Source of the DNA: Marasmius tenuissimus
Lineage: Eukaryota > Basidiomycota > Agaricomycetes > Agaricales > Marasmiaceae
Reading direction: 5' to 3'
Assembly (NCBI GenBank): GCA_029532415.1
Contig: JAQOTA010000047.1
Coordinates: 558,001 to 622,000 of the forward strand
DNA length: 64,000 bases
Shown: in pieces, positions 2,718 to 64,000 of the stretch
Layout: each line of letters opens with the position of its first letter
Position numbering within the stretch: the first letter of the stretch is position 1
Position numbers and translations under genes: made by a program
The notes under the pieces: generated by a model
Database searches by the model: none
Told to the model about the DNA's origin: nothing
The model's input: only the letters and a program-made list of their open reading frames with translations

Positions 2718-3374
2718 TCATGATGATGATGGCCAATGCCATTGACCGACGACGGGTTTAAAAAAAAAAAGGGGGCTGCCAATGATATCACCGCCACGTG
2801 TTGGTATACATAAGCTAGCTGCACCGTTGAACGAATATCCCCGGCCCGCACCGAGTGATGGAGCGCCTGTACATCGTAGGCAACAGCTTTCACATCGAGG
2901 CAGACGGCAAACATATTGACCGCCTGGTAAAGACATGAGCAACTGCAAGATTACAAGGATCGAGCATAACATGGGGGGAAACACTTGCCATGAATCGGTT
3001 ATGCGCATCCCCCAACTCCTTCCTCAAACTCGCCAATTCTTCCTTCGTCTTGTTCGCAAACAACAGACGCCCCCAGCGCTTGGTACGAGATTCTCGTTGG
3101 ACTTCAGCCATAGCATCATGGATTCGTACGAGGATGCTACATCCGGCGGATACTTGGTCTAAGCATATTGAGATGATAACTAGGACGTTGCAACTCACCG
3201 CTCAAAGTCCCTCACACTACACTCCATATCCTCCGTCGGCCTGACATCACTCCTCTGCATTTTTCTCGACAAGTCAGCCAGAATACCAGCGGCCAGACGG
3301 TGTAGATCCGCATATTCAGCTCTGTTGCCTCGTATAGTCTAATAATATAAGATCAGGACAGCGCGATTCAGAAG
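2718..3374 (-). pseudogene. Truncated member of the helical-bundle (HeLo-like) family
   Basis: Read on the minus strand, this matches the last three exons of the intact gene at 44600-45913: the exon with AEYADL-type and RPTEDM-type motifs (about 3335-3198), the exon with KRWGRLLFANKTKEEL (about 3130-2985), and the last exon with MFAVCLDVKAVAYDV (about 2925-2760). The 5' exons are absent because homology stops in an intron at about 3374, where the KDZ transposon begins. The T-run that contains the stop codon in the intact gene has 11 T here, so the stop is out of frame and translation would run on. The penultimate intron has GC at its donor, as in the 44.6-kb gene. I call it dead. Confidence 0.75.
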
Positions 3375-34656: not shown

Positions 34657-34914
34657 TGTTGAATCCGGACTACCGGATATATGGACCGTTGTATCGGGCC
34701 ACATATATGCTTCAATCGTTTCACTATGATCTATGCTATTCCTAGTCACTCCTGTTATAGAAGATACAGCCACCTCTGTATAGTATATAAGTAGCTCTGT
34801 ATCTACATGCAATACCAGTACTTTTACTACTCTCGTTGCTGCCTCTAAGCCTATCTCCAGGTGAGCTAGTCTGTCCCATGCTGCCACTGCGTGGGCAGGA
34901 CCTCTGCCTCAACA
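34657..34914 (+). repeat. Copia 3' LTR
   Basis: This is preceded by the polypurine tract GCGAGGGGGAG (34646-34656). I find two differences from the 5' LTR. Confidence 0.95.
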
Positions 34915-35085
34915 GGACCCACATTGACAATGGTCACGAATCAACCTGGGGCTCAGTTCACGGAATCTTAAGATTAGCACTAAGATCTGCGTATCGGATG
35001 GGTATTTATACATAGCGTGAACACTTAAAATACAATTTGGAGCAGCTGAACCCAAACGAAGTGCGAGCCCCGGCGGGAAAATCAC

Positions 35086-39369: not shown

Positions 39370-39764
39370 TTATCAAGGTAAAAACAAGGCAGATTTTGGT
39401 GCTGATGGTTATTGGGTCGAACTGGCTGGTGGAAGCACGTTACAAAGAGAGGCATGGAGGAAGGGAGGCAATAATTGTATGGACCTGTGTGGACAAACGC
39501 CGCGTGAGGCTGTCAGATTTCGGACCTTTCAAGTTTCTTCGGAGTTATTCGGCACCACGAGGGAATTGTGGGCCCAAGTAGGGCTAAGTGCAAATCGACG
39601 GGTCCACTTTGCTTCGATATGGCGTACTCAGTAGATGCTGGTCAAGAAAACCCAAACTGGGTTCAAAATTTAAAAGAAATGACTCAAAGAAACTATCCAT
39701 GTCATACAGTATCCAAAGCATACAGTCAACCCAACTATCCCCCAAGGCTCGCCTAACGCAGTAC
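39370..39764. other. Intergenic, F-box copy 1 to pectate lyase A
   Basis: Nothing recognisable is seen. Short open frames lack motifs. Confidence 0.4.
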
Positions 39765-44599: not shown

Positions 44600-45913
44600 A
44601 TGGCCACAAAGACTGCTACAGAACCTCAACAGCTTGAGGTTTATCTACGTGCTCTAGTGCTTGCCCTGGTGCGTTTGATGTTCACTGATGACGCGGACCT
44701 ACTCAAGTATGTTTGTCTGTTGTAGCACGCCAATGTTGACGACCACCCACTTCTCGAGCTCGGAGACGCGGTCTCCACCTACATATTAGTCCTGATTAAG
44801 GAGGATCCTGCACATAAGATTGACGAGAAGCGATATCGAGGGTTTTACAGGTAATGTTTATCTTCTACTTTTTTTGCTTTTGACTAGTGTCTCCCCGAAA
44901 ATCGAAAACGATATTGACTTCTTCCGCGTTCTTAGTACCGTTCAGGACATCGTGAAGCACTTTGAAGATATCTGGGCAAAAGGAAACCCGAACGTTGCAC
45001 ACGGTCGCCTTCCATCCCATGTCGACAAGTGCCGCCTTGCTCGTTTGAAGAAAAGGCTCAATGCAAAGTACAACGTCGCTTCTAAAGTGAGTAATCTTGG
45101 CAAACGAGCGGGATTTGCCACTCGACCTCAACGCATTTGCTCAGATGCCCAAGCCCGCTGTGTGCAAATGGGAAGATGGTCTTATACTCGCTGGCAGTGT
45201 CACTTCGACTATCAGTGCTGGACCGGGACTAGATCTGTTGAAGCCTGTAGGAACCGTCCTGAGTCAAATCGGGGAGCTGGTCAAGGTGTGTTTCTTCTGA
45301 TTGAATCGTCCTGATGTCCCGATCTTATATCGTTCTACCAGACGATACGCGGCAACAAAGCTGAATATACGGATCTATACCGTCTGGCCGCTGGCATCTT
45401 GGCTGACTTGACGAGCAAGGTGCAGAGGAACGATGTCAAGCCAACGGAGGATATGGAGCGTAGTGTTGAGGACTTTGAACGGTGAGTACTCGCATGGTTG
45501 TCCTGATGGCTTGTTTCAATGCTCAATTCATTGGCCATCGGATGTAGCGCCCTCACCCGAATTCGTGATTCCATTGCCGAACTTGGACGCGAGTCTCGTA
45601 CAAAGCGCTGGAGCCGCCTCGTGTTCGCAAACAAGACGAAGGAAGAATTAGCGGGCTTGAGAAAGGAGTTGGGGGATGCGCATAATCGATTCATGGCAAG
45701 TGTTTTCCCCCATGTTATGCGCGATACCTGCAACCTTGCGCCTGCTCACGATGTATATTTCAGGCGGGCAACATGTTTGCCGTTTGCCTCGATGTGAAAG
45801 CTGTTGCCCATAATGTGGAGGCGCTTCATCACTCGGTACAGGCTGTTCGCGTTGAAGTGGCCAATAGACCATTACGTGGTGTTGATGTCATCGGCGAATT
45901 CTTTTTTTTTTAA
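44600..45913 (+). CDS. Helical-bundle (HeLo/MLKL-NTD-like) protein, gene 1
   Basis: Seven exons: 44600-44668, 44726-44850, 44936-45086, 45145-45285, 45342-45481, 45548-45695 and 45764-45913, total 307 aa, all phases consistent. The N-terminal third has DDHPLLELGD, KEDPAHKIDEKRYRGFY and VQDIVKHFEDIW. From residue about 116 (KWEDGLILAGSVTSTISAG) to about 258 it is helical, with LLKPVGTVLSQIGELV, RGNKAEYTDLYRLAAGIL, VKPTEDMERSVEDFERAL, RIRDSIAELGRES and the FANKTKEELAGLRKEL block. This order resembles the four-helix N-terminal bundle (MLKL_NTD/HeLo class) of fungal NLRs and cell-death executioners. No enzymatic or sensor domain follows. The tail is MFAVCLDVKAVAHNVEAL and ends in four Phe at a T-run. 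Intron 6 has a GC donor; if retained, the frame stays open and gives a different tail. Function is inferred only. Confidence 0.75.
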
Positions 45914-46743
45914 GCACCGCAACGATCGAGGTCTGACTTTGATCGAGCTTTGATTAACAATAGTTTAAATCTGAGTATGGTATAGCCTGGTATAGCGGCG
46001 GCGTCGGTTAATATATCTTCCATTGAGCAGCAGAAACGCCGATCAGATATGCGGTTTCCAGATTCATTGCGCCCTCCATACATCTCTATACATACCAACT
46101 CTACACCGACAAAAAAGGAATCCTGGAGTCTCACTCGGGAGACTATACGCGGTTGTCAGTCTGGATAATGCAAGGAGTATTCGGGAAATTCATCAGAATC
46201 ATACCAGAATCTACCTCCATACTATTTAGCTTTGGCTTCAGGTCTAGTGGTCAGCTGCCTTTCGACGGTAGCATGTGCCGGCTCACCACTTTGCAGCTTC
46301 TCAAAACGGTCAAATCGAAATAGTTGCTCATATGCTAGGCCTGTTACCGGCCCGCTCAATGACGAGCAAGCTGTGTGTATACTCAGCTTGCTCGTCATAC
46401 ACAGACCGGTGACAGGTCTACTCATATGCACAAGAAGACAGATATGTCTTGAGGGAATTCTTCAGAGCATTCTTTTGTTCGACCCTTGTTACTGAGGCCC
46501 TGGGCCCGTCCTGAGTCCTCAGGTGTCGAGAGAGTAGCAGGCCAGGATCACGAGCGTCCTTCGAGTTGGGCCTGTAACTGACCCCTGGTCACAAGTTGAA
46601 TTGTACGCTTGGTCTTCAACATTGACGGACCTGTCACAGGTGTACCCTCGAGCCAATATCTCTCGTAGTCTGTAGCTCGATCAAGGTTCATTTCTATCAT
46701 ACACTATGTACTGACAGTCTTCATTTAACCCTCACTCCAGCAC
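45914..46743. other. Intergenic, bundle gene 1 to pectate lyase B
   Basis: No gene is seen. The only structure is the long hairpin at 46329-46428. Confidence 0.45.
46329..46428. repeat. Long hairpin: 45-bp inverted arms with 10-nt loop
   Basis: Arms 46329-46373 and 46384-46428 are imperfect inverses, with GACGAGCAAGCTG perfect at the tip and CATATG at the base. The loop is TGTGTATACT. Because of the symmetry, open frames on both strands contain PVTGL. It could be a small MITE remnant or a structured RNA. Confidence 0.6.
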
Positions 46744-48146
46744 CTAAAAAGTCAAAGTCTGACCAGCATTCGCCGTAACCGACGACTTCACGCTTCCTGT
46801 AGCCAACAAGCTATACTGGTATGGTGCCGTGTTAAAGTTCCCAGCGGGAGCAGTGTTGGATCCTCCACCAAAGTCGTTGCCACGGGCGACGGCGTATCCG
46901 CCGTCGGTGGAGTAGAGCGGTCTCTTGGGTGCTGAAGAGTTAAGGGGTTCAGTGATGGCCGAACGAAATGCAAGTGAGAGGAGAACGTACAAGTCCAAAC
47001 GTTATTTTCAACGAGCAACTGGGCACCGACACGAGTGTTAATTCCGTCTTCGCAGCTCTCGTAGTAGTTGTTATAGATGTGACCGCGGCCTGGAAGTACC
47101 AGTTCAGCCGGATAGAAGGAGCGTTTTCGACTCGAGTGACTCACCGAATCGGAAGGAAGGAGTCCTGGAACCGATGTTCTTGAAGTAGTTCCCGACGTAG
47201 GTAACAGTCATCGCGACGTCCTCAGTGTTTGTGTCGGCGGCGCCGATGAGGGATCCCTGACAGGTGATTGTTGTTAGATACACGAGCATAGGTAGGACGC
47301 ACGTCGACATACCTTGTAGTGGTTGGAGAGCTTGCTGTTTGAGACAGTGATGCCAGTGACGGCGTGGGTGATGTCCAAAAGACCGTCGTAGCTTTCATTG
47401 TGCGTCAGTAATAGAACTTACACAGATGAGCGCGACGTCTTACTAGTCCTGAGCACCAAGATACAAGATCAGTATACTTCCGTGGATCGAATTGACCAGA
47501 ACCACATACCTTGTCATGATCCTTGTCGCTCGACAAATCCACATGATCGATCCAAACCTGGCTGGATGATTGAACCCCAATGGCGTCTCCAGCACTTGCA
47601 AGGACCTTGGACACCTTCACGTTTCGGATGATGACATTCCTGACATCGAGAGCACGAAGACCAACACCGTTGAGTTGAGAACCCTTGGCACCGAGAACGG
47701 AGGTGTTGGATCCGACCCGGACTGCGGTGTTACCGGTAATGGTGCCTATGGTTAAGGAGAGGAATGGCGTCGGTATGGTGCGCAGACTAATTCAGATGTT
47801 GAGAAGACGTACCGGAAATTATGACGATCTTCTTGGCATCGCCTGCAATTGCGCTTTGAAGAGCAGCCAAAGTCGTAACGGTCGTCACTGTTCCTCCAGA
47901 CCCACCGGTGGTTCTAACAGTAATGGGCGTATAGGTCAGGCTAGGATACAGGAAGGCTCTGTGTCGAAGTCGCGTACCCCCGTTCATGGCCGCATAGCCG
48001 ACAGTGGCAACATCATTCACACCAGCACGTTTTTCGAGCGGCGAGGCCTAAATTGATTGTGTCAGTTGGCCACGAAATCGACACAAACTTCGTCGACGTA
48101 CCGAAACAACAGCGATTAGAGCAACGATAGATGATAACCACTTCAT
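46744..48146 (-). CDS. Secreted PL1-family pectate lyase (copy B), possible frameshift
   Basis: This paralogue of 39765-41189 has the same exon layout. The signal peptide MKWLSSIVALIAVVS and ASPLEKR are split by the first intron (48101-48048). Motifs include VLGAKGSQLNGVGLRAL, VWIDHVDLSSDKDHDK, DITHAVTGITVSNSKL, SLIGAADTNTEDVA, RTPSFRFG|RGHIYNNYYE, RVGAQLLVENNVW and the C-terminal VTANAGQTLTF. The 5-nt micro-exon GACTA lies at 47444-47448. At the end of exon 2 the G-run has five G where copy A has six. With the visible GT donor and TAG acceptor this shifts the frame into exon 3. Either the gene is newly inactivated or another splice site is used. Expected product: extracellular pectin lyase activity by beta-elimination. 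Confidence 0.75.
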
Positions 48147-50053
48147 GGGGAAATCAAAGCTACGACCGAGGCTATCGTCTCTTTCTCAGCATAAGGCATC
48201 CTTTTATACCTCCTAAGGCTAGCCAGCTAACATCTCGATTAATCCAAAGTTGATCCTTTCATTGAGTTTCCTGACAGCGCCGTCCCCCCTCCCACGAATT
48301 TGCCAAGCTGGTGAACGGGTCGAGTGAGATGAATGGTGAATTGAGGTTTTATACCGGCGTATCGAGGGAGTGGTAGGTAAGGATGACACAATCCATGTGG
48401 ATGAATTCGAATTTCCCTCCTTGTGACTAGCCGGAAGATGATGGCCCTCTATAGTAGCTAGGTCATACGGAAAGCTGTTGAATTTCATGTTGAATGTGGG
48501 TATTTTCCGAGCGTTTTTCCATTTGTACCGGACCGGTGCGAGGAATCGATGGATCATGCGCTTGTTCCGTAGAGTAGATTGAGCAGAATTGAGGAGAAAG
48601 TGACTCTCGACGGGTACAATCCGCCCTTCTCCGAACTGGGACCGAGCTGTGTTGCCCGACAGAACCCAAGTCCCGAGACTGAAGCCGCAGCGAGCTCCAA
48701 GTGCGAAATTATAGCAGTAAAACATAGCGGCAGGCCAGAGAAGCTTATCCGTCGCTCATGAATGGTTTCGGATTGTCGGTATGGTGTCCTCGAGGGTCTG
48801 ACCCAGTCGATTCTTTGAATATTACTGGCCATGGTTTAGTGATCAAATTTTGATTAGCGGTAGTGGGCCAAAGAAAACGCAGGAAGTATACCTGAAGCTA
48901 TGCTACGAGTAAGATCTTTTTAGAAGATTGATGAGCATAGAGCCCTGAAGCTGCAGACTTGACTTCGCGGATGGACACGGGCCATGGAAGTCAAGCATAG
49001 GATCAAGGGGATGCGTGACGAGTGACGTATCGCGTCTGGTTTCCTGTTTCCTCGTGACCGTGACCCAATCCCAGCTTACTTTCCGACATCAATGTTCCCC
49101 AACATCCACATTCAACATGGCTCGAATCTAAAGATCAAAATGCTTAAGGGCACACAAGCGCGCCATTCCCCGACTCTCTAATCTGGATGAAGATGTATAG
49201 GTGTATCTAGGTAATTATGAAAGCATGCGTAACTCTCTAGCCCAGTACAAATTGGAATATATAATAACAATCAAGCAGCCACAATAACAATGCAATTCCG
49301 GGATTTTGTGCACGGACTGAACAGTGAACTTGCCGAACATCTCTGCAAGTTTGACTGCAAGAATACGCAGATCTTTGGCGGCCCTTTACTTCGTCAAGGC
49401 GGAGGTTGATTCCAAGTTAATATCTCCCGAGGGAGAGCGCCTGCTGGCTTCTTGAATTTCGACTGTTGTTCCGATACCGCTCATGAGGGCACGTAGAGGT
49501 TGAGTTTCGAAGGTTCAGCTGCGTCGCGGGCTCTGGACTGTACATGGATTCTGGTTGAATCCTGGTCCTCTGGAACCTCCTGAAATTTGAATTCATTGCG
49601 GTAAGGTCACATGCTATGCAGCTCACGTGAGAGCAGACTCACGTGCTTGGCTTGATCGGGCGTTCACAAAGCCCTCCTCTCTAAAGAGAGTCGGGGATCC
49701 GTGCATCTCTACGAATAGCGAGGACTTATGCAAAGTGCCTGCCTTCGTTGGATCGCTCGCTCAATCTCCACCGGTGACCGTCTGACCACCCGCATCATCT
49801 TCAGCGCCTCGCAATACAACAGCTTCAGACATACTGGAAGCGCTGAGCGCCCAAATGTTCTGGCCATGATCAACCCCAATCGACAGTCCTCGAGCTTCTC
49901 AACAGCCTTACAGCCTCCATCGGGAACTGAACCTTCGTAGGCAGGGGCCTGGGACACCTACGCTTTCCTACGCTTTCTCAACACACCAACACTCGGTCTT
50001 CGGTCTTCCAACAGCCCTGCGTCTTCTCTGCTCTTGCTTGACTTCCAGAAACA
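48147..50053. other. Pectate lyase B promoter and upstream region of bundle gene 2
   Basis: 48201-48208 is a TATAAAAG box (minus strand) for pectate lyase B. 48215-48760 resembles the copy A promoter. 49060-49080 has CGTGACCGTGACCC, and 49735-50050 is similar to the DNA ahead of bundle gene 1. No other gene is seen. Confidence 0.45.
48201..48208 (-). promoter_or_regulatory. TATA box of pectate lyase B
   Basis: TATAAAAG on the minus strand, 55 nt upstream of ATG 48146, at the same distance as in copy A. Confidence 0.55.
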
Positions 50054-51296
50054 ATGGCCACTCTGACTACTACAGATCCTAAACAGTTGCACGTTTATCT
50101 GCTCACCATAGTACTGACTCTGGTGCGTTTGCTTCTTACTGACGACGCGGACCTATGATTTCTAAACTATCTTTCTCGTCTCACAGCACGCCAATGACAA
50201 CGACCACCCGCTCCTTGAACTCGGGGATACGGCGTGCACCTACATGATAGCTTTGATCAAGAGGGATCCAGCCCACAAGGCTGATGAGAGAGGATATCGA
50301 GGGTTCTACAGGTACCCATCGAGCTGTTTCCGTCGGAAATTGAAACCAACATTGATGTCTTTTGTTTCTGAGTATCGTTCGCGATATCGTGAGGCATTTC
50401 GAGAATCTGCAAGCCGAAGGAAATCCAAAGCCAACACACGCTCGTCTTTGCCACCTCGACAAGTATCGCCTCCGGCGTTTGAAAGGGAAACTCGACTCGG
50501 CGTACAAGGCCGCTTCTACGGTGAGCTCTCTTTTGTTCGAGGGCTGACATTCGATATCAACCTCTTTGCCTAGACTCAAAAACCCCTCGTATGCAGATGG
50601 GAAGACGTGCTGATTCTCACTGGGGGGGTTGTCTCGACTATTAGTGCTGCACCGGGATTGGATGTATTGAAACCTGTTGGAAGTGTATTGAGTCAGCTCG
50701 GAGAACTGGTCAAAGTATGTTCTCTCTTGTTGTGGGGCTATGGTCATCTTATTTTACTCTACAAGACTGCACACAGTAACAAAGCCGAATATGCCGATCT
50801 ACTGCGTCTGGCCACTGCCATTTTGGCCGAGTTGACGACTAAGTTTCAAGCGGGTCATGTCAAGCCGACAGAGGATATGCAACGTAATGTAAGGGATTTC
50901 GAGCGGTGAGTTCTTCTGTGAGATTACATGGCTCAGACGTTGAGCTGATATTATCAATAACTTGACGCAGTACTCTCATCCGGATCCGTGACTCGATAAC
51001 CGAACTCGAACGTGAGCCTCGTGTGAAGCGCCTGGGGCGTCTGCTATTCGCAAACAAGACCAAGGAAGAACTGGGGGGTTTGCAGAAAGAGCTGGAAAGG
51101 GCGCAGATGGTGTTCATGGTAAGTTTTTTTTCTTGTCACTCTCGACGCCTGTGGCTCATGTGTGCTACTATTCTAGACGAGTAACATGTTTGCCATGCGC
51201 CTCGAGGTACAAGCTGTTCACCTTGAAGTGAAGGCTGTGCGGGCGCTCGGCCCGAAGTCGATGCATATGTCTCGATTATCGATATCATTTTTTTAG
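50054..51296 (+). CDS. Helical-bundle (HeLo/MLKL-NTD-like) protein, gene 2
   Basis: Seven exons parallel gene 1: about 50054-50122, 50187-50311, 50373-50520, 50574-50714, 50766-50905, 50972-51118 and 51177-51296. It starts MATLTTTDPKQLHVYL. Landmarks are DNDHPLLELGDTACTYM, KRDPAHKADERGYRGFY, CRWEDVLILTGGVVSTISAA, VLKPVGSVLSQLGELV, KAEYADLLRLATAILAEL, VKPTEDMQRNVRDFERTL and RVKRLGRLLFANKTKEEL. The last exon (MFAMRLEVQAVHLEVKAV) is much diverged from gene 1 and ends at TAG after a short T-run. Intron 6 has a normal GT donor. It looks intact. The same HeLo-like inference applies; no partner domain is present. Confidence 0.75.
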
Positions 51297-52087
51297 ATCC
51301 TGATTCCCCGTTGATCCTTCATCTTGGGGAGTAGTTTGCTTGCCGAAAAAGATTGTCTGGACCCTCAAGCCACCGTTCTGTGAAAGGAGGATAGTCGCAG
51401 CAAAGGATTCAGCTTTGGAGTTCGAAGGCTGCGATGGTGTACCATACTAGCAGCAACAGACTAGAGAATCAGGAGTATGGGAAGACCCTATGGCAGGCGT
51501 GATATATACTAGGTCGAACCTATGGTCCCCTTTCTTCCATCAACAATATCCGAACTATCCTTGAGGAGCGTCAGAGCGATATATAGAAAAGCTTCCATAG
51601 CTCGAGATCGAGCTGAGAGATCTAGATGAAACATTCGACTTGAAGCCTCGGAATTTGAATGGATCCGATTCCTGGTAACTTTGATTTTCGAATAATCATC
51701 GTCCTTCAGTATTCAGAGGTTATGTGCAGCTGATTAGTGAGTTGGTCTGAGGATATAATGCGGGAACGTGAGCTAGCAGCTGTAAGTGTACACGAGGAGC
51801 GAGTTCCAGGAGGTAGAGAGGTGAGTCGCGCTCGTGGGAAACCCAACTCTTGCCTCTTAACCTGACTCCATCACACAGGTCGGAGCATTCCAGATCTCAA
51901 TCCACCTACGCCGGCGTCCCTGCAGTTACCACACGAAATGACGAACCGTTCAAAAGCCACAGGCATCGTATAAGATGGACAGATTCCACAAATGCCATGC
52001 CACATTCCCCTCTGCCCCTCTAAAATGTCGTCCGCGTCCTCATTCCGCTCACAACGCTCTACCCTCACTTTCTAAACCACCCATACG
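51297..52087. other. Intergenic, bundle gene 2 to ALDH remnant
   Basis: 51450-52080 resembles 59100-59690 in front of the second ALDH remnant (shared GTACGCCGGCGT-type, CACACGAAATGACGAA-type and GCATCGTATAA blocks). The two units are therefore segmental duplicates. No independent gene is evident. Confidence 0.45.
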
Positions 52088-53566
52088 TTGACAAACCGGA
52101 CGGTCAAAAGCTTCCCAGACCCTCTACCCACGATAGGGGACATCTACACGTACGACATAATCCCCACGATCCACGCCGACCTCATCCATTCCTTTACCCA
52201 GCACTCCTGCTTCACCAACCACGGAAAACTGACATGTATTCGATCTCGAAAGCGTCAACTCCTTGCACTACTGAAATGGTCAAAGGTTGGAAAAATGGGC
52301 TTGTAGGAGGGAGAAGTGACGAAAGGGTATTGTGTTGATCGTCCTTCATTCCACTTACTCGCTCTACACGAGTTTCGTTCCATTGGCATCGGCCATTGCA
52401 GCGGGAGACTGTGCTTTTCCCCAAGTTTTGAACGGTGATGAGTGGATGATGGAGTTGGTTGGGAAGTACGTGGACCCCGACGTCGCTCGTGCCGCTGAGA
52501 CGCTCTTGGAAACTCTCCTCCCCCTTACTTGGGCACACATTCACTTCACTGGCACTTGACATCTAGGAAAGACGATTGCATATGCAGCTGCACGGCATCT
52601 AACACCTACGACGCTCCACCTCGCAGGGAAATCACCTATATTCCTCGACTCAACAAACGTGTCAACCCGATCACTCGTACGCGCTGCAAGGAAGATCTTA
52701 TGAGTGAAGTCAGCGAATGCAGGACAGACGATTGGGGTACCGGATTGGTGTTTGTGCTGGGTGGGGAGGAAGAGAGAGTCGTGCATGCCTTTACAAAACG
52801 CATAGGATCTTTTCCCTCTCTCATGAATGCACATGTTGAACTGACACGGGTCTCATTAGGCCCGCTAAACTTCGTTCGAAGGGATGCCCACCACCAGCTG
52901 CGTTCACGTACCTCGTCGATACAGAAGCCTTCGATCACGTCGCATCCCTTCTCAGCCGGACAAAAGGATAAATCGTCATCGGCGGCGAGACGGTCAGGGA
53001 GAAGCGATACGTTGCATCGACCGTTGTACCTGGAGCGCCCTTGTCGGATGTACTTTTGCAAAACAAAGAAGCCATGATGGTGCTGATCATACCAAACGTA
53101 ACTGTGGAGAGGTAGAAGGACGCAGTGGAGTTTCTTGAGGGGGAGGAGGTGAGAACGGTGTGTGCATCTCAAAAGGATAGAGCATTTAGACAGTATAGTG
53201 CGTCCTCTCTTCGACTTCTCGGCACTTTCTGTGTATTGACGATGAACATGTAAAGCACGAATGTAGCGATACATCAGGCATTTGTACACTCCAGTGTCGG
53301 TCGGGCTGGGTTTGATGCGTCCTCGCATTATAGAGGCGTAGTGGGTAGTCATAGCCATAGTCGTGGTCAAAGTTCTGGGTTGCGCGTCTTTTCTTTTCTC
53401 CGCTCTTCCCTTCACATATGCTGATGAACGAACCTGTAGCTTTCACCGGATCCTTCCCACACCTCTCCGGTACCCGTATCCACCATATTCCGATGCCAAA
53501 CTCGGACTCGTCAAGATCGCAATGTTTGGTTCCCTCGGTGGGCCGAGGTTCCCTGCGCATGTTTGA
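52088..53566 (+). pseudogene. ALDH3-type aldehyde dehydrogenase pseudogene, copy 1
   Basis: Fragments in family order are spread over several frames: an N-terminal part (IPTIHADLIHSF, FTNHGKLTCIRSRKRQLLAL), the Rossmann part (YTSFVPLASAIAAGDCAF), HIHFTGT with a TGA after it, AAARHLTPTTLHLAGKSP, NAGQTIGVPDW in the active-site region, a segment related to the VDRVA/IVIGGETVREKRYVAS region of copy 2, and the C-terminal LRYPYPPYSDAKLGLVKIAMFGSL. The catalytic Cys of the QTC motif is replaced by Ile. Several frameshifts and stops make it non-functional. In life ALDH3 enzymes oxidise fatty or aromatic aldehydes with NAD(P). Confidence 0.7.
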
Positions 53567-55211
53567 AGACGAGGAGGGATTTCGTAGATGGGAATAGCGC
53601 GTGAACGCTCCGGATGACCGGGACGCCTTCCCCGTCGATTTTCCTTCTTACTACTATTGATCGTAACGACGATCGATTCGACTTGAACTTCAAGCGTCAC
53701 TGTATGATTATAATTCTCTTGTATTTTACGCTACTCAAATACTTAGATGTATCCATATCACAAACCTCTATTGAGGACTAACTGACCAACGTGGGATCAG
53801 ACTCACGACTTTCGCGTCAACAGATCGGGGCTTTGGCCCATCCACATAGCACGGCGCTTTGACCAACTGGGCTAGTCAGCCGTGACGGCGTACAGGCTAG
53901 TAAGTATATACGCTCAGCCCCATTTGGTAGGTTTAATCTTCTCAAAATTCCTCACGCGTCTCTGAGGGATCTCAAATCTTTACCGCAATTCGGAGTTCCA
54001 GGCGGACCGGCTCCAAAGCTGGTGCATTGAAATTTGGAAGCACGGAACTGAGGAGTGGCGTGACTTCTTTGGTGTGACTTGTCGCGTCGAAGCCTGATGA
54101 CCGTGACTCGTGACTCTTGTTCCCGACTTCCATCTTGACGACCCTCAAAGCCCAGAAACCAGACTGTCGATCCACCCACCAGTAGAGTCAAGAGGACTTT
54201 GTCTATCTGTGCGGAAGAACTAGAGCGCTTTTGGGCTTCATCAATGTCGATAGGTCAAGAACTCGGAATCAAGCCAGTGCCTGTCGACTCGGATTATCGG
54301 ATACCGTCGATAGACGCTGAGTTCCTCAATATTTTTCCAGTTTCTGTTCGGAACTCCTCATGACCTCGGGCAAACCCTCGTGCACAACCTCCTGCACAAC
54401 CTCCTGGAATCTTTGTTCAAGTTTACGGCTACTGTTCTTCTGGTCGGCTCAGCAATGTCAGATGGGCCCTGGTATCTAGGAAGTCGAGCGGTGAGCAACT
54501 CAGGACTGTACTTGATCACGGTACTTGCTTGATGTGAATGTCCAGTGTGTCGAAAGCAGTGCGGTTATGATTCAATGCTATCTTTGTCTTCCAAGTTTTC
54601 GAACAGACCCAAAAAAGAGCTCGAGTCGTGGGACTCGTGCGATGTGACATAAACCACCCTCAGTTGATATGGCGACATGCACTAGCTCTGTCAACGGGAG
54701 AAGCCCCAACAGCATCGGTAGAATGACCGTCAACGTCAATTTTGTATGCACCGCTCCGGCTAAGGTTCCATCCTTCCGCTGCACGCTTCCTCAACAGCTT
54801 GAGACGTTATTGAACCATAGATATTGCTCTCAAACCCCTACTGAGGCCGTCGGGTCTACCATGCCATCCAATACATGTTCCTGGTGTCCGGAACACCCTC
54901 ATGGCTCAAAGTAATCGGATGCGAATGATCAACCCCTAATAAGGACTTCCAAGGCTCCGAGTCTTGGCTATACCCATTGATAGCCCTCGATTGCTTTAAG
55001 CGGCAAGTTTATTTTCAGAATCGCTAGTATGACTGAGACTCAAGGCGTTCCGTTATACTTAGATGCTCTCTAACAGCTTTCGGATGCTCCTTTTACACTA
55101 TCGGTAGTTATCAACAGCTTCCTTGTGACCTTAAAAGCCTCCCCCCTCCCCTACTTTTCGTAGTCCAACTCATCAAACCTCTCGAGATTCAGATCCTTCC
55201 CTTCGGTAGCG
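53567..55211. other. Intergenic, ALDH remnant 1 to bundle gene 3
   Basis: It contains a tRNA-like relic (53783-53881 -), a GTGACTCGTGAC-type block near 54105 and CAACAGCTT repeats near 54793, 55071 and 55097. No protein gene is recognised. Confidence 0.4.
53783..53881 (-). tRNA. tRNA-Ile-like relic with an insertion in the anticodon loop
   Basis: The minus strand reads GGCTGACTAGCCCAGTTGG at the 5' end and TGATCCCACGTTGGTC at the 3' end, matching the acceptor and arms of the two Ile-like sequences at 20.8 and 37.2 kb. About 25 nt interrupt the anticodon loop, which could be a tRNA intron, but the stem no longer pairs well and the anticodon cannot be read confidently. It is probably a pseudogene. 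Confidence 0.35.
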
Positions 55212-56525
55212 ATGGCGACGCCAGCCGCTATAGAGCCCAAAGGATTCGAAGCCAATCTCCGCGACTTAGCGTTCGCTTTGGTCAGCTCAAATCGTGGTGA
55301 CTCTTGACCATCGTACCAGTACTGACTGTTCTGTCGATCAGTGTACCAAAGAAGATGATCACCCTCTTCTTGAGGTTGCAGACGATGCGTGCTCTCGGAT
55401 AGTGGCTTTGATGGAGAAGGACCCGGGCCATACAGTCGGAGAGGACGATTATCGAGAGTTTTATAGGCAAGTCTTTTTGGTCCCGACCCTGTCCTAATTC
55501 TCCGTATCTGACGCCCCGAAAGAGTCGTCCAGGACATCATCGATCTCCTCGAGGACCTCAAAGAAACCGATCTACCCACCAATCCGAGTCGATTCTCCAC
55601 ACTTGACTTGATCAGGTTGAAGAGGAAACGCAGGCGCAAGAAGAGGAAGCTCAAACGGGAGCTCAAAAAAGAGTTTGAAAGGGCGTTTCAGGTTAGTTGT
55701 TGTGCTTTCCTCAATACACTGACTCAAACCTTTGTCCAGGCTGCTAGATACAAGTGGGAGGACGCTATAATCCTTAGTGGCCGTGTCGTCTCCACGATCA
55801 GTACCCTTCCCAGCTTGGCGATGTTGAAGCCTGTGGGAAGCGTGTTGGAGCAACTAGGGGAGCTTATCAAGGTATGTTCTTGTAATCTCGGTGAGACAAA
55901 TCACTCTCCCTGAATCCGCCCCCTTCCAGACAATGCATGGCAACAAGGACGAATGTGCAGAGTTGCTTCACCTCGCTACTCGTATCGTCGCCGATTTATC
56001 GGGAACAATCCAAGGTCAATCGCAGATGCTGCCCGACGCTGCTATTGTCACCAGCCATTTCGAGCCGCGGGAAGAACTGAAGCGGGATCTTAGAACCTTC
56101 GAACGGTGAGTGTTGTGAGCTTTGCTGGTCTGGCCGTGGCTGATGTTTTGTGTTTCAATGTTGTAGGACCCTCCTTCGTATTCGTGACTATGTTACCAAC
56201 CTCGAACGCGAGTCCCGTGTTAAGCGCTTGAGGAGATTCGTTCTGGCGACTGCGATCAAGGAAGATCTGGCTTCATTCAGAAAAGAGTTGGGGGATGCAC
56301 AGTTGGTGTTTGTGGTGAGTCCCAACTTGTGTTTCACTCCGTTTCAAGAGCTTGCGCATCCTCGATCTGACATGTCATCCTACTTCTCAGACAAGGAATG
56401 TCTGTGCGATCCGTATACAAGTGCATCAAGTGCATGATGCCGTTCGTTTACTCAACAAACCGATGGCGCACGATGGCGAGCTAGCCAAAGTCGCCGCCTC
56501 TTTCAATCTTGTCGTTTTTTTATAA
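55212..56525 (+). CDS. Helical-bundle (HeLo/MLKL-NTD-like) protein, gene 3
   Basis: I start at ATG 55212 (MATPAAIEPKGFEANLRDL). An earlier ATG at about 55029 runs into TAA after 14 codons. Exon 1 is 55212-55280 (69 nt, like genes 1 and 2) and exon 2 begins at 55342 (CTKEDDHPLLEVADDACSRI). Intron 2 has a GC donor (AG|GCAAGT near 55466). Exon 3 contains an unusually basic stretch (LKRKRRRKKRKLKRELKK, about 55612-55665). It is followed by KWEDAIILSGRVVSTIS, LKPVGSVLEQLGELI, NKDECAELLHLATRIVADL, an insertion relative to genes 1 and 2 before REELKRDLRTFERTL, and RVKRLRRFVLATAIKEDL. The conserved FANKTKE block has become LATAIKE. The tail differs and ends VVFL at a T-run before TAA (56523-56525). 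Confidence 0.7.
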
Positions 56526-59500
56526 AGGGGGTGACCTGTACATGTAGTACAAGGTTCAAGGTATCTTGTACAAGGCATGGTGTGCCACCCCTTATGCTAC
56601 ATTGCGGCCTCACCCCTTTCTCATGGACCTTTTTCTTTCTTCTACTCACTGTATCCCAATATTCTTATTCCATAAATTACTTATTCTTATTGAAAAATCA
56701 TTGCATATGTTCCATTGCATTGGGCTTTTTTGAGCTCACAGACTCACTCAGTAAGGGTGACCCGACTTCCAATGGATTCATAACGTGAGATAGGGGTGAG
56801 GCTTTGGCCTGACTAGGAGTCGGCCGCCATCGAGTGGGATATAGATGAGGGGTATGAGAGGTCATTCTTCGGAGCCATGGGCGAGCAGGCCCGTTGAAAT
56901 GGTTGTCAGCAGTCGATGTCGACCGGTGACGTTGGTTAGCGTTGATTTCTCGTGACTGTGGCTTGGACTTGGCTTGCTCTCCGACTTTGATCGTCCCAGA
57001 AGCATCCAACTCGAATACCGGTCAGAAGTCAATCATTCTGATATTGAATGGTGGATCTTTGTGCGCTTATAACTTGCTTAGAACATTCAACATTGATTAA
57101 TCAGGGATTGTCGACACGCCGCGAGCCAATATAGGTATAGTCTGCCGACCGGAAACTAGTGTCTATCCGTGCGTGCAGTATTTCAGCGCTTCGAGTTCAA
57201 GACTTCCTATGTAACATCTTTAGAGATGTATCAGAAACGTGCAGAGCGTAGGCCCCATCGAGTTTCCGCCCACCCCATACCCATGTTCAGTCATGAAACA
57301 ATGATTGTTCCAGCAATCGTGGTCCATTCGTAGAATGAACCACGGCGTTTGAGATTTGAAGCTTTACTCGAAGTCTCGAACGGCCGCGATCTCAAGTTTA
57401 TCACTCATCTTCAACGCTTCGCTTCAATTGCTTTAGTCGCTATCAACAGCTTCAGCTGCTTGTCCAATAACCCCGGGTTCAATATCGATCTAAGGAAGAT
57501 TTGGTGATTTGATGAGGGAGTTCGATGGTGCGCGAATGGTGTAGTGAGTTTTCTGTGGGCTCATTGGTTGAAGGTATCTGATGCTTTTGCGCGTTAGACG
57601 GGTAATAGTATATATGCGATATTCAGTTGATATGCATGCTATGGCCGTTCAGACCAGGTACGAGCTACCGCAGGCACAAGGTGGCAATACTAGGGCATGG
57701 TAACGCAACCATTCACAACCCATCGTTCCATGTCTGGCTAGTACTTACTTACCTACCACACTTAAATGTACCCTCGTGTACTTCGCGAACGGGATAGTTC
57801 AACTCCATTCATCCCCCCTCGATGTCCAAGCGCACGATCCAGATCTCACGCTCCACACCCCGAGGTTCTGAGATTGAGGCCTAACTCGTTGAGATCCAGA
57901 ACTATTCGTATCTAGACCGTGTTACTCACCATTCGCACTCCTTAATACGGGAACCACGTTCAGTCGCGTCGATGGCGTTATGATACAGAAAATCCAAGTG
58001 TTTCTCGAGATGCTCGTATGATTTGTTACCGAGGGCCCTTGGTCTACAACCTGGGTATGAAATACGATCTGTATCTGTTATCTGGACATTGATAAGGAAC
58101 AAGTTGATTGGACGAAGGCCGGTGCTGCTCACATTCTTCCCGTCGAGGCGTCTCAATCAGCCTGAGGCAGCTCCTTCGCCGCCTCTATCACTATCGAGTT
58201 CATTCTCTGCGATCAACTCATTTTCTTCCCGAGCGTCCAACAATCATGCACCAGCCACACCCCCGATGTTGAACTCATGGCAGATATTGGGGAATCGCAG
58301 TTCTTGATGGCGAATAGTAAATCGTAGGAGGTAAACCTAGATGCTGGTGAAGCAGCGAGAATAGAGGATAGCAGGACACGGAGAAAACGCGTCACGAACC
58401 TTGGGAGCCATAGGTCTGAGCGGATCTCGAGCGCGCTGTGATGGCCTTCACGATGAGTCGTTTTTCCGTCCAGGTTGTCGTTCTGCTAGGTGTGCTCGTC
58501 AGTTTTATCAACATCGTCATTCGAATGCCTCAGGTTCTCGATGCAGAATCTCCCTTCTCTCTCTTTAAATTGTCGCTCTACTTCTCGTCTCCAAGAGCAA
58601 CCCTCGATTAGTGTCGCTTAGACTGCCAAATCCGCACGTTCTCCTCCCTTGGTCGCTCCCGTCTACTCTCGAGCAGCAAGCGGAGTCGGTGAGAGGTGGG
58701 CGTTCCGTATCGGAACTCGAGTAACGAGTTGGGTGAAGATGAGAGTAGCTTGAATAATACATGTGTCCGGCCCTTGGCCAGGAGTTGCTGCTGCGGGATC
58801 TTTTAAGCGTTCGAAAATCCAGAACAATGCCGATTGGTACTTACCATACGAAGAGGTCATTGACCTTCGTTGAATTCCCTCGTCGTCGCTCATGAGCCTC
58901 CAGATTCCTTGCACCGGTCAATCCCCGTCCGTATTCTTCCCATTACTCTCGACCTCTTTCATCCAGTTCCAAGTTAGATCGAGGGCGTTACCTCGAGTCG
59001 TCAGGTATTTGAGGACCCGAGAAAGATCGATGTACGGGAAGCTGCCTATAGAAGTGCCGTTCTTGCTCTGTACGAGTTTACTAGTGAATAGGATTGCATG
59101 GTGAGGGATGCATAGTCGAATGGGGTTGGAAGGCTCACCTGGTAGGTCAAAGATATGGCCTCCCTTCCTCCCTCAACACTATCCAAGCTATTCTTGAGCC
59201 CTTAGAGCGTCATAACAATAGAGAGGTTTCCGTCAGGTTGAGAACGAGCTGAGAGATGGAACATCCGGCTTGAATTTTCCCGGATCCGGTTACTAGTATC
59301 TTGTATTTCCAATCGGTCGTTGTCGTGCTTCAAGCTTCACATCCTGAGAGGCTTGCAGCTAGTGGTCTCTAGGACCTTAAGCTTGACGGCTAGATGTGTG
59401 ACCGTCAATCAGCGCTTCAGCAGTGGATGACGCGAGAGTTCCAGGAAGTAGAGAGGTGAGTCGCGTTCGTGGGAAACCCATCTCTTGCCTCTTAACCTGA

Positions 59501-59690
59501 CTCCACCACGGAGCATTTCTCAATCCACCTACGCCGGCGTTCCAGCAATCACCATACGAAATGACGAAACGTTCAAAGGCTACAGGCATCGTATAAAATG
59601 GACAAAGCCACGAAAGTCATGCCACATTCCCTTCCGCCCTTCTAAAGTGTCATCCGCATCCTCAATCCGCTCACATCGCTCTACCCTCAC
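56526..59690. other. Gene-poor stretch between bundle gene 3 and ALDH remnant 2
   Basis: A CGTGACTGTGG block (56953) and CAACAGCTT (57437) resemble the leader of bundle genes, but no bundle exons follow, so a gene may have been lost here. On the minus strand about 58914-57926 has short open frames (for example QATLIFTQLVTRVP, SYEHLEKHLDFLYHNAID) that may be exons of an unrecognised gene. I could not assign a family. 59100-59690 duplicates the ALDH 1 upstream region. Confidence 0.35.
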
Positions 59691-59699
59691 TTTTCAAAC

Positions 59700-61325
59700 T
59701 GCCCACACACTCACTCACCAGACGGTCAAAAGCCTGCCAGACCCTCCACCCACAATAGGCGACATCTACACGTACGACATAATCCCCACGATCCACGCCG
59801 ACCTCATCCATTCCTTTACCCGGCACTCCTGCTTCACCAACCACGGAAAACTGACGTGTATTCGATCTCGCAAGCGTCAAATCCTCGCGCTAGCTAAAAC
59901 AATACAAGAAATGGAGGATCCGTCCTGCTACTTGAACTGGGACAATCACATTTCGAGACGCAGGTATACGAAATCGCTACCACCTTGAAAGAATTATCAG
60001 ACCTTTAAAGTGTTGGATAATTGGGCTCGTGGGGGGCGGAAGAAGCGAGGAAAGGGTGTTGTGTTGATTATTCCACATTCCAGTTACCCGCTCTACACGA
60101 GTTTCGTTCCATTGACATCGGCCATTGCAGCGGGGAATTGTGCTGGTCTCCAAATTCATAGTGGCCTTGGGTGGGTGGCCGGGTTGTTTGGGAAATACAC
60201 GGACACCGACGTCGTACGTGCCGTTGAGACACACCCGGAAAATCTTCTCCCCCTCACTTTGGCATATATCCACTTCAGTGGCACTCGACACCTAGGAAAC
60301 ATGATTGCATGTATAGCTGCAAGGCCTCTGACGCCTACAACGCTCCATCTCGCAGGCAAATCATCGATTCTCCTCGATTCACCAAGCATGTCAACTCGAT
60401 CGCTCGTACGCGCTGCAAGGAAGATCTTATGGGCAAAGTCAGTGGATGCAGGACAGGCGATTGGGGTACCAGATTGGAGGAAGAAAGAGTCGTGCAGGCT
60501 TTCCAGAACGCGTACGTCCTTATTCCTCTCTCATGAATGCATATGTTGAGCTGACACGGGTCTCCTCATTGGGCACGCCAAACTGTTCCCGAATGGATCT
60601 CCACCACCTGCTGCATTCACGCGCCTCATCGATACAGAAGCCGTCGATCGCGTCGCATTCCTTGTCAGCCGGACAAAAGGACAAATTGTCATTGGCGGTG
60701 AGACGGTCAGGGAGAAGCGATACGTTGCATCGACCGTTGTACGTGGAGTGCCCTCGTCGGACGTACTTTCGCAAAACGGGGAAAACTTGATGGCGCCGAT
60801 CAGACCAATCGTACCTGTAGAGAGGTGGGACGACAGAGTGGAGCTTCTTGAGACGCTGGAGACTTTGGGGACGACATATGTGTTTTCGAGGGATCAAGGG
60901 TTTAGGGGACACGGTGCGTTCGACCTCCCTCTGCTCTGCTTAGTATTGATACTGACGACTACAGAACAGTTCTTCAAACAACAAAAAGTGCGAAGACGAT
61001 CATCAATCAGACGACCATACATGGTTCGGACTCTCAGGCAACTGGTGGCCAAGATGGGTTTGACGCGTTCTCCCAACATCGAGCCGTACTAGGCGGCCGA
61101 CCTGGTCGTAGCAGCTGGGATTCGGGGATGTGAGTGACTCTTTTCTCCTCATTGACGTCGAGTGTTGCTAATCATCAACACTGACAGCCTCTGTCGCGTC
61201 ATTTCCACACCCCTTCGGTACCCATACCCAACCTATTCCGATGCGAATGGGGCTCGTGAAAATGGCGATGGTTGGTTCACCTGAGGGGCCCAGGTTTCCC
61301 GTCCATGTTCGAGGGCAGAGGTAGG
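59700..61325 (+). pseudogene. ALDH3-type aldehyde dehydrogenase pseudogene, copy 2
   Basis: This has the same order as copy 1 but more remains: IPTIHADLIHSFTRHSCF, RSRKRQILALAKTIQEMED, FETQVYEIATTLKELSDL in a shifted frame, YTSFVPLTSAIAAGNCA, IAARPLTPTTLHLAGKSS, AAGRKILWAKSVDAGQ-like and GVPDW, TEAVDRVAFLVSRTKGQIV, GGETVREKRYVASTVVRGV and IRPIVPVERWDDRVELLETL. The C terminus (near 61200-61310) resembles copy 1. As in copy 1 the active-site Cys is Ile (QAIGVPDW), so loss of the nucleophile predates the duplication. Multiple frameshifts are present. Confidence 0.7.
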
Positions 61326-62928
61326 CGAATGGCGGATAAGAACGATGACTCTCGATGGGTCCGCTTCTGCGACTTCCCCTACATCTACGCGATTCCATAC
61401 ATGACTAAATCTATTCGACGCTTCGATCTATCGATGTAGAAAGGACTTTGGCACGTTACAACTGTATTTGTACACAGCACTCAATTGTACAGTCACCCGC
61501 CGTACTACATGTATCCGTATTCGTATGTATCACGAACTCGAGACCTGTAATGCCTACCAACCTTCCGAAGGGCTGTTTTGTCACTAGTTTATTCCCAGAA
61601 CTTAACTCGATGTGCAGCATGGTTTCGGAAACATCTCAGAAGATCATGAAGTTTGAACCCAAGATCTCTGTGCGAAGGATACCGTCGACCGAAGGCTCGT
61701 CTTACAAGCCGCCATCAGATTGAGGAATCGAGAAATGCTCCTCGCTGGAAGGACGGGAGCTGGGCCCGGGACCCGGGAGAGGGGTGACTCCATGGCTGTG
61801 ACTTTTCGCGTTGATTTCTCGTGACTGTGACCCAATTGTACCTTGCACCCAACTCCCATCTCCCATGATGAATCGACGAAGCTCAAGCTCCTAATTCGTA
61901 CGGAATTCGAGTGCTTTGCAGGTGCTATCTGTCTATGCGATCTCCGAGTCTCTTATCAATCAAAGGGTCTGCTCCCGTCTGGAAGACAAGCGAATAAAGG
62001 CTTCAAGCTGACGGGAACCTGGACAGTATGGTATACGTTTCGTGCCAGTGAACGCTGGACCTCTCAGAAATCTTTGTCTTTGACACGGCTCGTATCTCAA
62101 GAAGGCCATCTGAGCTGCTATGGAACAGGCCCTGAGCCCTCCCCCAACATGACATACGTCTGACAATATCCGACCAGATCCAGTCGGACCAACGGAATCC
62201 ACGCAGATACAAACAAATCCAGCCAGATGTTGCCGGAAGACCCGCACAAACATCATTCTTGTCCAATGGTACGCTGTGAAAATCACGGGTGATGGCCTAT
62301 CATAACTTATCAAGTCTTCCAACTGCTATTGACCTCACGGAGGGGCCATCTACTTCTCTTCGTGCAGAATGACATACAGAACCAGCCGGCTTCATCGAGA
62401 TTCAACTGTTTGGGGCGAAATTCTCAGGACTTTTCATCAAAGAACGCAACAGCAAGTTCGGGAACTGCTGTCTCTTTGTTGGCCAATAGAATTGTCAGCA
62501 GCCATGCTGGGCCCTCGTGAACAGCTTTCCATCTGCGGCGAGATTTATTGTACTGGCCTTATCCCTCCGCACTCGACATACTCGAACTTGAAGGCTTGTC
62601 ATATCGCCTCGATCGATGGTAGGCATCTCTACGCACACGCGGACACTCGAGCTCACTAAGGGAGTCCTCTTTAGTGTACCACCACCTCGTGGAGCTCAGC
62701 CTTTCTCGACGAGGAACTCAACAGCTTCGGGAGACCGGCGCCTCTATAATGATCATGCTCAATGCCGCCAGAAGACATCATGAGCGCTAAGCGCTCGTCA
62801 ACAGCTTTCCATCTGCCTGGGGGGTTCATTCTGACCTTATACCCACACTCAATCCCTTGAAGACTCCCCATATCGCCCGTATCTCAGAGGGACGCAATCA
62901 AACGAATCGTTCGCATCTTGTGAAGAGG
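61326..62928. other. Intergenic, ALDH remnant 2 to bundle gene 4
   Basis: It has CGTGACTGTGACCC near 61823 and two CAACAGCTT or GAACAGCTTTCCATCTG-type blocks (62517 and 62799), shared with the other bundle-gene leaders. No gene is recognised. Confidence 0.4.
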
Positions 62929-64000
62929 ATGACAACCGAAGGCTTAGACCCCAAACAACTCCAAGATCGTCTCAGTGCCCCAGCAATAGCAACGGCAGCG
63001 GTGAGTGTCCTTGATCTCCTTTACATAAAGACTGAGTGATGTTTCTCTTCCTGCTCTGCCGCCCGATAGAATGGTATCGCGAAAGATCGCCCGCTCCTCG
63101 AGCTTGCGGACGACGCATGTTCTCGGATGGTGCTCTTGATGGACAACGATCCAGACCATACAATCAATGAGAAAAGATATCGAGAGTTCTATCTGTAAGG
63201 CGTTCGTTCTTTGCTCAGCATCCTCGTATGTGTCTCATGCGGCTTGAACAGCACCGTGCAGGATATTATCAAACAGTTTGAGAAGATGACAAGTACCGAT
63301 ACCCAGGGAAATCCGGCGTCTAAGCCTATTCGATTCCGCAAACTTGTCCTTTTCAAGCTGAAGAGAAAACTCGAGAGGGAGTTCAAGAAGGCAGTCACAG
63401 TGGGTCGGATTCTCTTCCTCGCTTTCCAGAGTTACTTTGCCACATTGTTAACGCTCATGATTGTCATGTTCCAGTCGCAAAAACCCTCCGTTTGTAGATG
63501 GGAAGATGTTCTTGTTCTTACCGGCGTTGTGGTGTCCTCGATCAGCGCCGCTCCTGTGTTAGCCCCTTTGAAGCCTGTTGGGAGTGTCTTGGAGCAACTC
63601 GGAGAGTTAGTCAAGGTATGCTGAACGGCGATCTGTGTTGATGTCACTCCGAGTCCTGACGACCACCACCGTTTCACCTCTAGACTGTTCGCACTAATAA
63701 CGAGGAGTGCGCGGAGCTTCTCCATCGAGCGACTAGTATTCTGGTAGAACTGTCGAGGGCGATGCAGATGGGTCCTGAACTTGAACCAACTGAAGACATG
63801 AAGCGTGCTATCAAGGCTTTCGAACGGTGAGTATTGGGTCTTGGGGCGTTGGTACCCTACCGATTGACTAATGATGATGACCGCCACAGGACCGTCATTC
63901 ATATCCGGGACTACGTAGCTCGACTTCAACAAGAGTCGAATGTTAAAACTTTTGGTCGCGTCGTCTTCGCAAATAAGACAAAGGAAGATTTGGCGGATTT
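62929..64000 (+). CDS. Helical-bundle (HeLo/MLKL-NTD-like) protein, gene 4 (runs off the window)
   Basis: It starts at ATG 62929 (MTTEGLDPKQLQDRL). Exon order matches genes 1-3: DRPLLELADDACSRMVLLM and DNDPDHTINEKRYREFY in exon 2, VQDIIKQFEKMTSTDT and a basic KLKRKLEREFKKA in exon 3, VCRWEDVLVLTGVVVSSISA and LKPVGSVLEQLGELV in exon 4, NNEECAELLHRATSILVEL and LEPTEDMKRAIKAFERT in exon 5, then FANKTKEDLADF at the window edge. Introns have GT-AG ends where seen. The last exon is outside the window. It is closest to genes 2 and 3 in different parts. It looks intact as far as it goes. Confidence 0.7.

What the first reader, a model, noticed from the sequence alone, without database searches (positions are those of the whole stretch)
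44600..64000. Tandem array of stand-alone helical-bundle genes resembling HeLo/MLKL N-terminal domains
Four same-strand, seven-exon paralogues (44.6, 50.1, 55.2, 62.9 kb) plus a truncated fifth at 2.7-3.4 kb share a two-part helical protein of about 300 aa. Seen: strict exon co-linearity and conserved blocks (KPVGSVLxQLGELV, NKxEYADLLRLA, PTEDMxRxVxDFERxL, RVKRLGRLLFANKTKEEL). Known: fungal HeLo/MLKL_NTD four-helix bundles have a similar helix order and act as cell-death executioners or NLR N-termini. Inferred: these may be free-standing bundle proteins with a family-specific N-terminal domain and no sensor or enzyme attached, in a rapidly evolving cluster. That could be an immune or allorecognition system, or decoys of one.
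Basis: partly seen in the sequence, partly recalled or inferred. Interest (0 to 1): 0.75.

Follow-up and report, generated by a model that had tools for sequence, protein, structure and literature searches.

The report
Clustered free-standing MLKL-like fungal genes
A mushroom-forming fungus carries a large, old cluster of small genes whose proteins look like free-standing relatives of a known cell-death helix bundle, a kind already reported in mushrooms, here with an extra front part seen so far only in Marasmius.

Summary
Four same-strand, seven-exon paralogues lie at 44.6, 50.1, 55.2 and 62.9 kb (the last ends 233 bases outside the window), with an opposite-strand fragment at 2.74-3.34 kb and another at 57.5 kb. 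The genome matches Marasmius tenuissimus. All 30 named homologues found are Marasmius.

The second half of the protein matches Pfam MLKL_N in one register in several members, always below the curated cut-off; reversed controls do not. Fold searches were inconclusive because the models are weak. No bundle exon was found at a NACHT receptor. Most usable pairs show strong purifying selection on the bundle, against 'rapidly evolving' or 'decaying'; exchange between paralogues is supported.

Free-standing MLKL-like (BaMLKL) proteins of basidiomycetes were described in 2022, so the kind is known. Added here: an N-terminal four-helix part of about 115 residues, a dense old cluster, and a glycine-rich tail seen only in long forms. 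Most likely role: latent membrane-attacking executioners; no function is shown.

The parts
44600..45913 (+). gene 1, 307 aa; exons 44600-44668, 44726-44850, 44936-45086, 45145-45285, 45342-45481, 45548-45695, 45764-45913
   Evidence: exact spliced model; first model
50054..51296 (+). gene 2, 296 aa; exons 50054-50122, 50187-50311, 50373-50520, 50574-50714, 50766-50905, 50971-51118, 51177-51296
   Evidence: exact spliced model
55212..56525 (+). gene 3, 317 aa (public record PM082_014036 = P0022); exons 55212-55280, 55342-55466, 55523-55691, 55740-55871, 55930-56105, 56167-56314, 56391-56525
   Evidence: exact spliced model; record name
62929..64000 (+). gene 4, 304 aa (P0017); exons 62929-63000, 63070-63194, 63252-63399, 63475-63615, 63684-63826, 63890-64037, 64096-64233; the end of exon 6 and all of exon 7 lie outside the window
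   Evidence: exact spliced model
44600..45086 (+). gene 1 exons 1-3: N-terminal part of about 115 aa; four helices predicted in two paralogues
   Evidence: models of P0002 and P0017; relatives only in Marasmius in full-length searches
45145..45695 (+). gene 1 exons 4-6: bundle region with the MLKL_N-like stretch (aa 155-255)
   Evidence: PF22215 E = 0.008, 16.1 bits against a cut-off of 27
63475..64000 (+). gene 4 bundle region; best MLKL_N match of the window genes
   Evidence: E = 0.00022 (whole protein), 5.3e-5 (core alone), both below the cut-off
2741..3338 (-). truncated copy, from exon 5 on, closest to the gene 1 type
   Evidence: P0008 residues 163-209 and 211-291 at 77% and 75%; inverted repeats 2936-3145/45539-45748 and 3193-3340/45340-45487
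57500..57688 (+). short fragment similar to the C-terminal region of gene 4
   Evidence: 42% identity over P0017 residues 244-289

Best explanation
The genes encode free-standing members of the MLKL/HeLo/Goodbye superfamily of four-helix bundles, of the basidiomycete type called BaMLKL in the literature, with an additional N-terminal four-helix part of about 115 residues. Most likely mechanism (inferred, not shown): the protein rests as a soluble, self-masked helical bundle; the N-terminal part and/or the C-terminal helix keeps the hydrophobic helix at residues about 124-138 covered; a trigger, probably from one of the NACHT receptors encoded elsewhere in the genome or from a mismatched partner in a hyphal fusion, makes the bundles assemble, expose that helix and permeabilise the membrane of the infected or fused cell. 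Many old paralogues under purifying selection, with exchanged pieces, would give alternative trigger specificities. Superfamily membership about 0.75; cell-death executioner role about 0.4.
For: (1) PF22215 MLKL_N is the Pfam family matched by most members, 8 of 29 at E <= 0.1, best E 7.2e-5. Five matches seen in detail share one register (first residue minus first model position = 146 for gene 1, P0017, P0018, P0019 and P0006). Cores alone: 4 of 12, best 5.3e-5. Reversed cores (10 of the 12): no MLKL_N, best match of any kind 0.0078. (2) Predicted helix order in the second half: one short helix (124-138), then 142-163, 168-191, 199-226, 230-280 (weak model); an extra helix in front of the MLKL-like core is what PMC9815663 reports for BaMLKL. 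(3) The most hydrophobic 19-residue stretch lies within residues 116-150 in 10 of 11 proteins measured, peak 1.15-2.31, above 1.6 in 3 of 11. (4) In the 11 of 45 pairs with dS under 1.3 in both parts (limit set after seeing the table), dN/dS of the bundle is 0.11-0.33 and lower than in the N-terminal part in 11 of 11 (the pairs share sequences). (5) Stand-alone architecture with no NTPase family over its cut-off, as in the 241 BaMLKL homologues of up to 400 aa of PMC9815663.
Against: All MLKL_N matches lie below the curated cut-off, and 21 of 29 members show none at E <= 0.1. A presumably unrelated family, MotA_N, matches 5 of 29 (best 0.0037) over an overlapping stretch, and weak APH (phosphotransferase) matches occur in gene 3 residues 23-123 (0.00087) and in P0006 residues 169-252 (0.019). 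AlphaFold models are weak (mean pLDDT 68.6 and 65.2, pTM 0.40 and 0.33), and fold searches gave no MLKL or HeLo row. A profile of the core does not align sensibly with the one clear MLKL_N protein of the same genome. Among the saturated pairs the bundle was not less changed than the N-terminal part in four (P0004-P0024, P0020-P0029, P0020-P0024, and g1-P0024 equal). No receptor partner, shared amyloid motif, expression or phenotype data.
Confidence: 0.5

Rival explanations
1. The bundle is a superfamily relative but not lethal: it serves as an adaptor, regulator or decoy that binds and restrains other MLKL-like or receptor N-terminal bundles through helix contacts.
For: The window's members lack the glycine-rich tail of the long forms P0024, P0026 and P0029. 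Peak hydrophobicity is at most 1.6 in 8 of 11 proteins. Several copies are fragments.
Against: Constraint on the bundle fits decoys no better than executioners; no bundle of this type attached to a receptor was found.
Confidence: 0.25
2. A Marasmius-specific helical protein family with an unrelated (for example structural or scaffolding) function; the MLKL_N likeness is convergence of helical sequence.
For: Sub-threshold matches only; matches to other families in overlapping regions; fold searches unspecific.
Against: Same register in five matches; ten reversed cores do not reproduce it.
Confidence: 0.22
3. A dying gene family without current function.
For: Fragments at 2.74-3.34 and 57.5 kb; T runs at several 3' ends.
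Against: Open spliced frames; dN/dS well below 1 outside the tail although most pairs have dS near or above 1; three well-supported groups, each holding members of two Marasmius species.
Confidence: 0.03

Closest known systems
BaMLKL, basidiomycete MLKL_NTD-like domains, free-standing form (PMC9815663)
   Same: Bundle-only protein under 400 aa in an agaric, no NTPase domain, weak match to MLKL profiles, an extra predicted helix before the MLKL-like core
   Different: An additional four-helix N-terminal part of about 115 aa; a dense cluster of 16 loci; no relative found outside Marasmius in the searches made here
Goodbye-like domains of fungal NLRs (PF17109, PF17100)
   Same: Core related to the MLKL bundle preceded by a longer helical extension, as described in PMC9815663; one family member (P0029) bears an automatic UniRef label shown as 'Fungal STAND N-terminal Goodb'
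   Different: No PF17109 or PF17100 match listed for the proteins scanned and no receptor attached
HET-S / HeLo and HELL executioners of ascomycetes
   Same: Free-standing bundle proposed here to attack membranes
   Different: HeLo relies on an extreme N-terminal helix (PMC12881547, passages), whereas here the bundle is internal; no C-terminal motif shared with a receptor was found
Animal and plant MLKL
   Same: Weak likeness to the N-terminal bundle
   Different: No kinase or pseudokinase domain over its cut-off

Membership tests
MLKL_N (Pfam PF22215) | profile score over the curated cut-off (27 bits) | tested here: not met
   8 of 29 members match at E <= 0.1, the best of them P0019 at 22.8 bits; trimmed core of gene 4 23.2 bits
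BaMLKL (free-standing) | bundle protein up to 400 aa with no P-loop NTPase domain | tested here: met
   window proteins 296-317 aa; no NTPase family over its cut-off in genes 1-3 (gene 3 in full) or P0017; the family member P0029, 452 aa, is longer than that study's limit
BaMLKL (free-standing) | four-helix core with an extra preceding helix (hG) and MLKL-like fold | tested here: inconclusive
   helix order fits but models are weak and the fold searches unspecific
BaMLKL / HeLo | membrane permeabilisation and cell death | not testable with these tools
   needs expression or liposome assays
HeLo with amyloid signalling motif | C-terminal motif shared with receptor N-termini | tested here: inconclusive
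   long-form tail found at 3 places in the genome, all in this family; motif-like N-terminal segments of 3 sampled NLRs have no clear match in the cluster (best E 0.31)
Goodbye (PF17109) | profile match | tested here: inconclusive
   no match in P0029 and nine others at E <= 1; the genome search rang nowhere, controls included
NLR (NACHT) with this bundle | bundle exons next to a NACHT domain | tested here: not met
   no place found by P0002, P0024 or P0017 coincides with any of the 76 NACHT places; only 78 of 207 NACHT candidates were scored, and distant bundles would be missed
MLKL sensu stricto | C-terminal kinase or pseudokinase domain | tested here: not met
   no kinase family over its cut-off in the proteins scanned; weak APH matches in gene 3 (residues 23-123, 19.6 bits, cut-off 23.2) and P0006 (169-252, 15.2 bits), neither behind the bundle

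The most novel reading that the evidence does not exclude
The cluster is a nonself-recognition (somatic incompatibility) locus of a mushroom in which free-standing bundle executioners themselves carry the specificity: the genus-specific N-terminal part works as sensor or lock, and recombination between paralogues makes new strain types without any NLR gene at the locus.
Probability: 0.08. Interest if true: 0.85.

Novelty: new member of a known kind. Interest (0 to 1): 0.4.

Why it matters
What executes cell death and somatic incompatibility in mushroom-forming fungi is poorly known (PMC8229728, abstract in a search listing, says so for incompatibility). A defined cluster with a mosaic allele between strains, and paralogues with and without a conserved tail, gives concrete proteins for testing whether basidiomycete stand-alone bundles kill cells and what restrains them.

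Tried and rejected

PDB by sequence: A4, A7, P0017 and P0024 at E <= 10 gave no MLKL or HET-s chain.

Relatives outside Marasmius: three searches (27, 24 and 12 hits, 32 distinct proteins) gave 30 named Marasmius and 2 unnamed. The tool needs shared 5-residue words and limits length, and searches scored only the 7997 candidates sharing most words, so distant relatives and full-length receptors could be missed.

PF17109, PF17111 and PF17100 in the genome: no match, uninformative for PF17109 and PF17100 because no control rang.

Papers: PMC9815663 read in passages, outline and sections 12 and 28; PMC12881547 in passages; other papers seen in search listings only.
Full report
What was checked. 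The window is C23:558001-622000 of a 71.06 Mb genome in 70 contigs. Its contig length, 3,800,625, equals that of the public records PM082_0140xx of Marasmius tenuissimus, and gene 3 is letter for letter PM082_014036. The species name is an inference from these records. M. tenuissimus is named as a cause of cacao thread blight (PMC8581569, abstract in a search listing).

Anatomy. All four genes have exact spliced models of seven exons. Of 12 proteins tried in that call, 8 fit seven exons, three fit other numbers (P0030 5, P0029 10, P0024 9) and one, P0026 of the other strain, had no exact match. Exon 2 is 125 bases in 11 of the 11 fitted models and exon 6 is 148 bases in 9 (P0024 139; P0030 has no sixth exon), so the co-linearity is real. 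Gene 1 and gene 2 are 64% identical, gene 1 and the partial models of genes 3 and 4 47%. The truncated copy at 2741-3338 matches from exon 5 on and is on the minus strand; a further scrap lies at 57500-57688.

Extent. Three genome searches and a local tblastn show 16 loci on C23 between 477,726 and 639,206, one on C28 and two on C7, fragments counted. Those between 496 and 561 kb are on the minus strand (8 of 8), those between 602 and 639 kb on the plus strand (7 of 7); the copy at 478 kb is on plus. The tree of 27 proteins, rooted only at its midpoint, has three groups: genes 1 and 2 with 15 others (100/99), gene 4 with three (100/100), gene 3 with the long forms and AFHP31_014771 (100/98). 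Each group holds members of M. tenuissimus and of Marasmius sp. AFHP31, so the paralogue groups probably predate that split.

Relatives. 32 distinct proteins came from three searches; 30 are named Marasmius and 2 (P0017, P0023) carry no name. The names are 'hypothetical protein', with UniRef labels shown cut as 'Fungal N-terminal domain-cont' (P0001, P0026) and 'Fungal STAND N-terminal Goodb' (P0029) or 'Uncharacterized protein'.

What the second half is. Pfam MLKL_N matches 8 of 29 members at E <= 0.1, more than any other family, best 7.2e-5. The matches seen in detail are P0017 154-249 to model 8-99, P0018 152-270 to 6-120, P0019 152-254 to 6-104, P0006 156-255 to 10-106, gene 1 155-255 to 9-106, P0024 196-257 to 44-105 and P0026 115-171 to 49-105. 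All are below the cut-off of 27 bits. Trimming to the core raises gene 4 to 23.2 bits, and 4 of 12 cores match. Ten of these cores reversed give no MLKL_N and nothing better than 0.0078. Against this, MotA_N matches 5 of 29 (best 0.0037) and APH 2 of 29 (best 0.0013), and a core profile does not align sensibly with the genome's one clear MLKL_N protein. The likeness is thus probable at superfamily level, not proven.

Structure. The two models agree on four helices in residues 8-115; behind them the first has six helices from 123 to 283 and the second five from 124 to 280 and a last one at 290-303. Fold searches found nothing specific.

Selection. Nei-Gojobori counts were made for 45 pairs of 10 genes. 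In the 11 pairs with dS below 1.3 in both the N-terminal part and the bundle (a limit set after seeing the table), dN/dS is 0.18-0.49 for the N-terminal part and 0.11-0.33 for the bundle, the bundle being lower in 11 of 11; the tail (exon 7 on) ranges from 0.30 to 1.20. Among the other pairs, many saturated or not computable, the bundle was higher in three and equal in one. The pairs are not independent.

Recombination. AAF712_004870 (P0001, another M. tenuissimus assembly) has 0 mismatches to P0003 and 12 to gene 2 in residues 1-43, but 27 and 4 respectively in residues 44-270 (Fisher p = 1.2e-7; the break point was chosen from the alignment). Within the window's own genome, gene 2 is nearer P0002 in the N-terminal part (dS 0.19 against 0.41 for P0003) but nearer P0003 in the bundle (0.27 against 0.48). 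This fits gene conversion or unequal exchange; the strain difference rests on public predicted proteins and could include an assembly error. The other strain pairs compared differ little where both models cover the same exons.

Tail. P0024 and P0029 end in a hydrophobic stretch and GFLYGGLGGG; P0026 has a near match. In genes 1, 2 and 4, P0002, P0003 and P0020 the frame ends at or just after a run of T coding for phenylalanines; P0004 runs on after such a run; gene 3 stops just before the glycines. A 27-residue query of the tail found 3 places, all in this family. Whether the tail is an amyloid-type signal is untested.

Receptors. 76 NACHT matches were found in the genome (78 of 207 candidates scored); none lies in C23:465-650 kb, the nearest on the contig being at 976 kb; on C7 one NACHT match is about 24 kb from a family member. 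Three NLR N-termini looked at are short and, by eye, rich in N, G, Q and S before the NACHT region, with no bundle.

Comparison with the literature. PMC9815663 describes 600 basidiomycete MLKL-like (BaMLKL) sequences among receptor N-termini, an extra helix before the MLKL-like core in BaMLKL and Goodbye-like models, longer extensions in Goodbye-likes, and hundreds of BaMLKL homologues separate from receptors, few with amyloid-like motifs. A search of the held library for the word BaMLKL found only that paper. The present family is best filed as a new member of that known kind, seen so far only in Marasmius.

Noticed in passing
window 51801-53500 and 59436-60852; C23:502976-504682 and 518249-520069; partial at C23:627001-627303: A repeated unit of up to about 1.7 kb, 80-88% identical in the long pieces (77% in the partial one), lies near several bundle genes of the cluster. 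It is not identified; it could be a mobile element or part of a duplicated block.
   Followed up: partly
window 7298-7597 and 15375-15674: Two 300-base direct repeats, 100% identical and 8,077 bases apart, flank long minus-strand open frames: probably a recently inserted LTR retrotransposon (by eye).
   Followed up: no
window 29903-30162 and 34657-34916: Direct repeats, 99% identical, flanking open frames at about 30.3-34.6 kb; probably a second LTR element (by eye).
   Followed up: no
C23:469559-474976 and 536792-542194: Two long similar frames beside and inside the cluster; the first matches RVT_2 at 1.2e-68 and other copia-type domains; the second was not scanned.
   Followed up: partly
window 39759-40798 and 46738-47758: Duplicated stretches, 80-86% alike at DNA level, whose minus-strand frames read like pectate lyases (by eye, motif recalled).
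   Followed up: no
window 37621-39369 and 42318-44015, minus strand: Two related frames of 583 and 565 aa resembling F-box proteins; a similar frame at C23:490444 matches F-box-like at 1.7e-5, while the window frame at 37621 gave no match at E <= 0.001.
   Followed up: partly
L038:946-3363 (match at C59:52122-52484): A protein of at least 806 aa in the same genome matches MLKL_N over the cut-off (28.5 bits) with no NACHT or kinase match at E <= 0.01; it is the only MLKL_N place found in the genome at E <= 0.1.
   Followed up: partly
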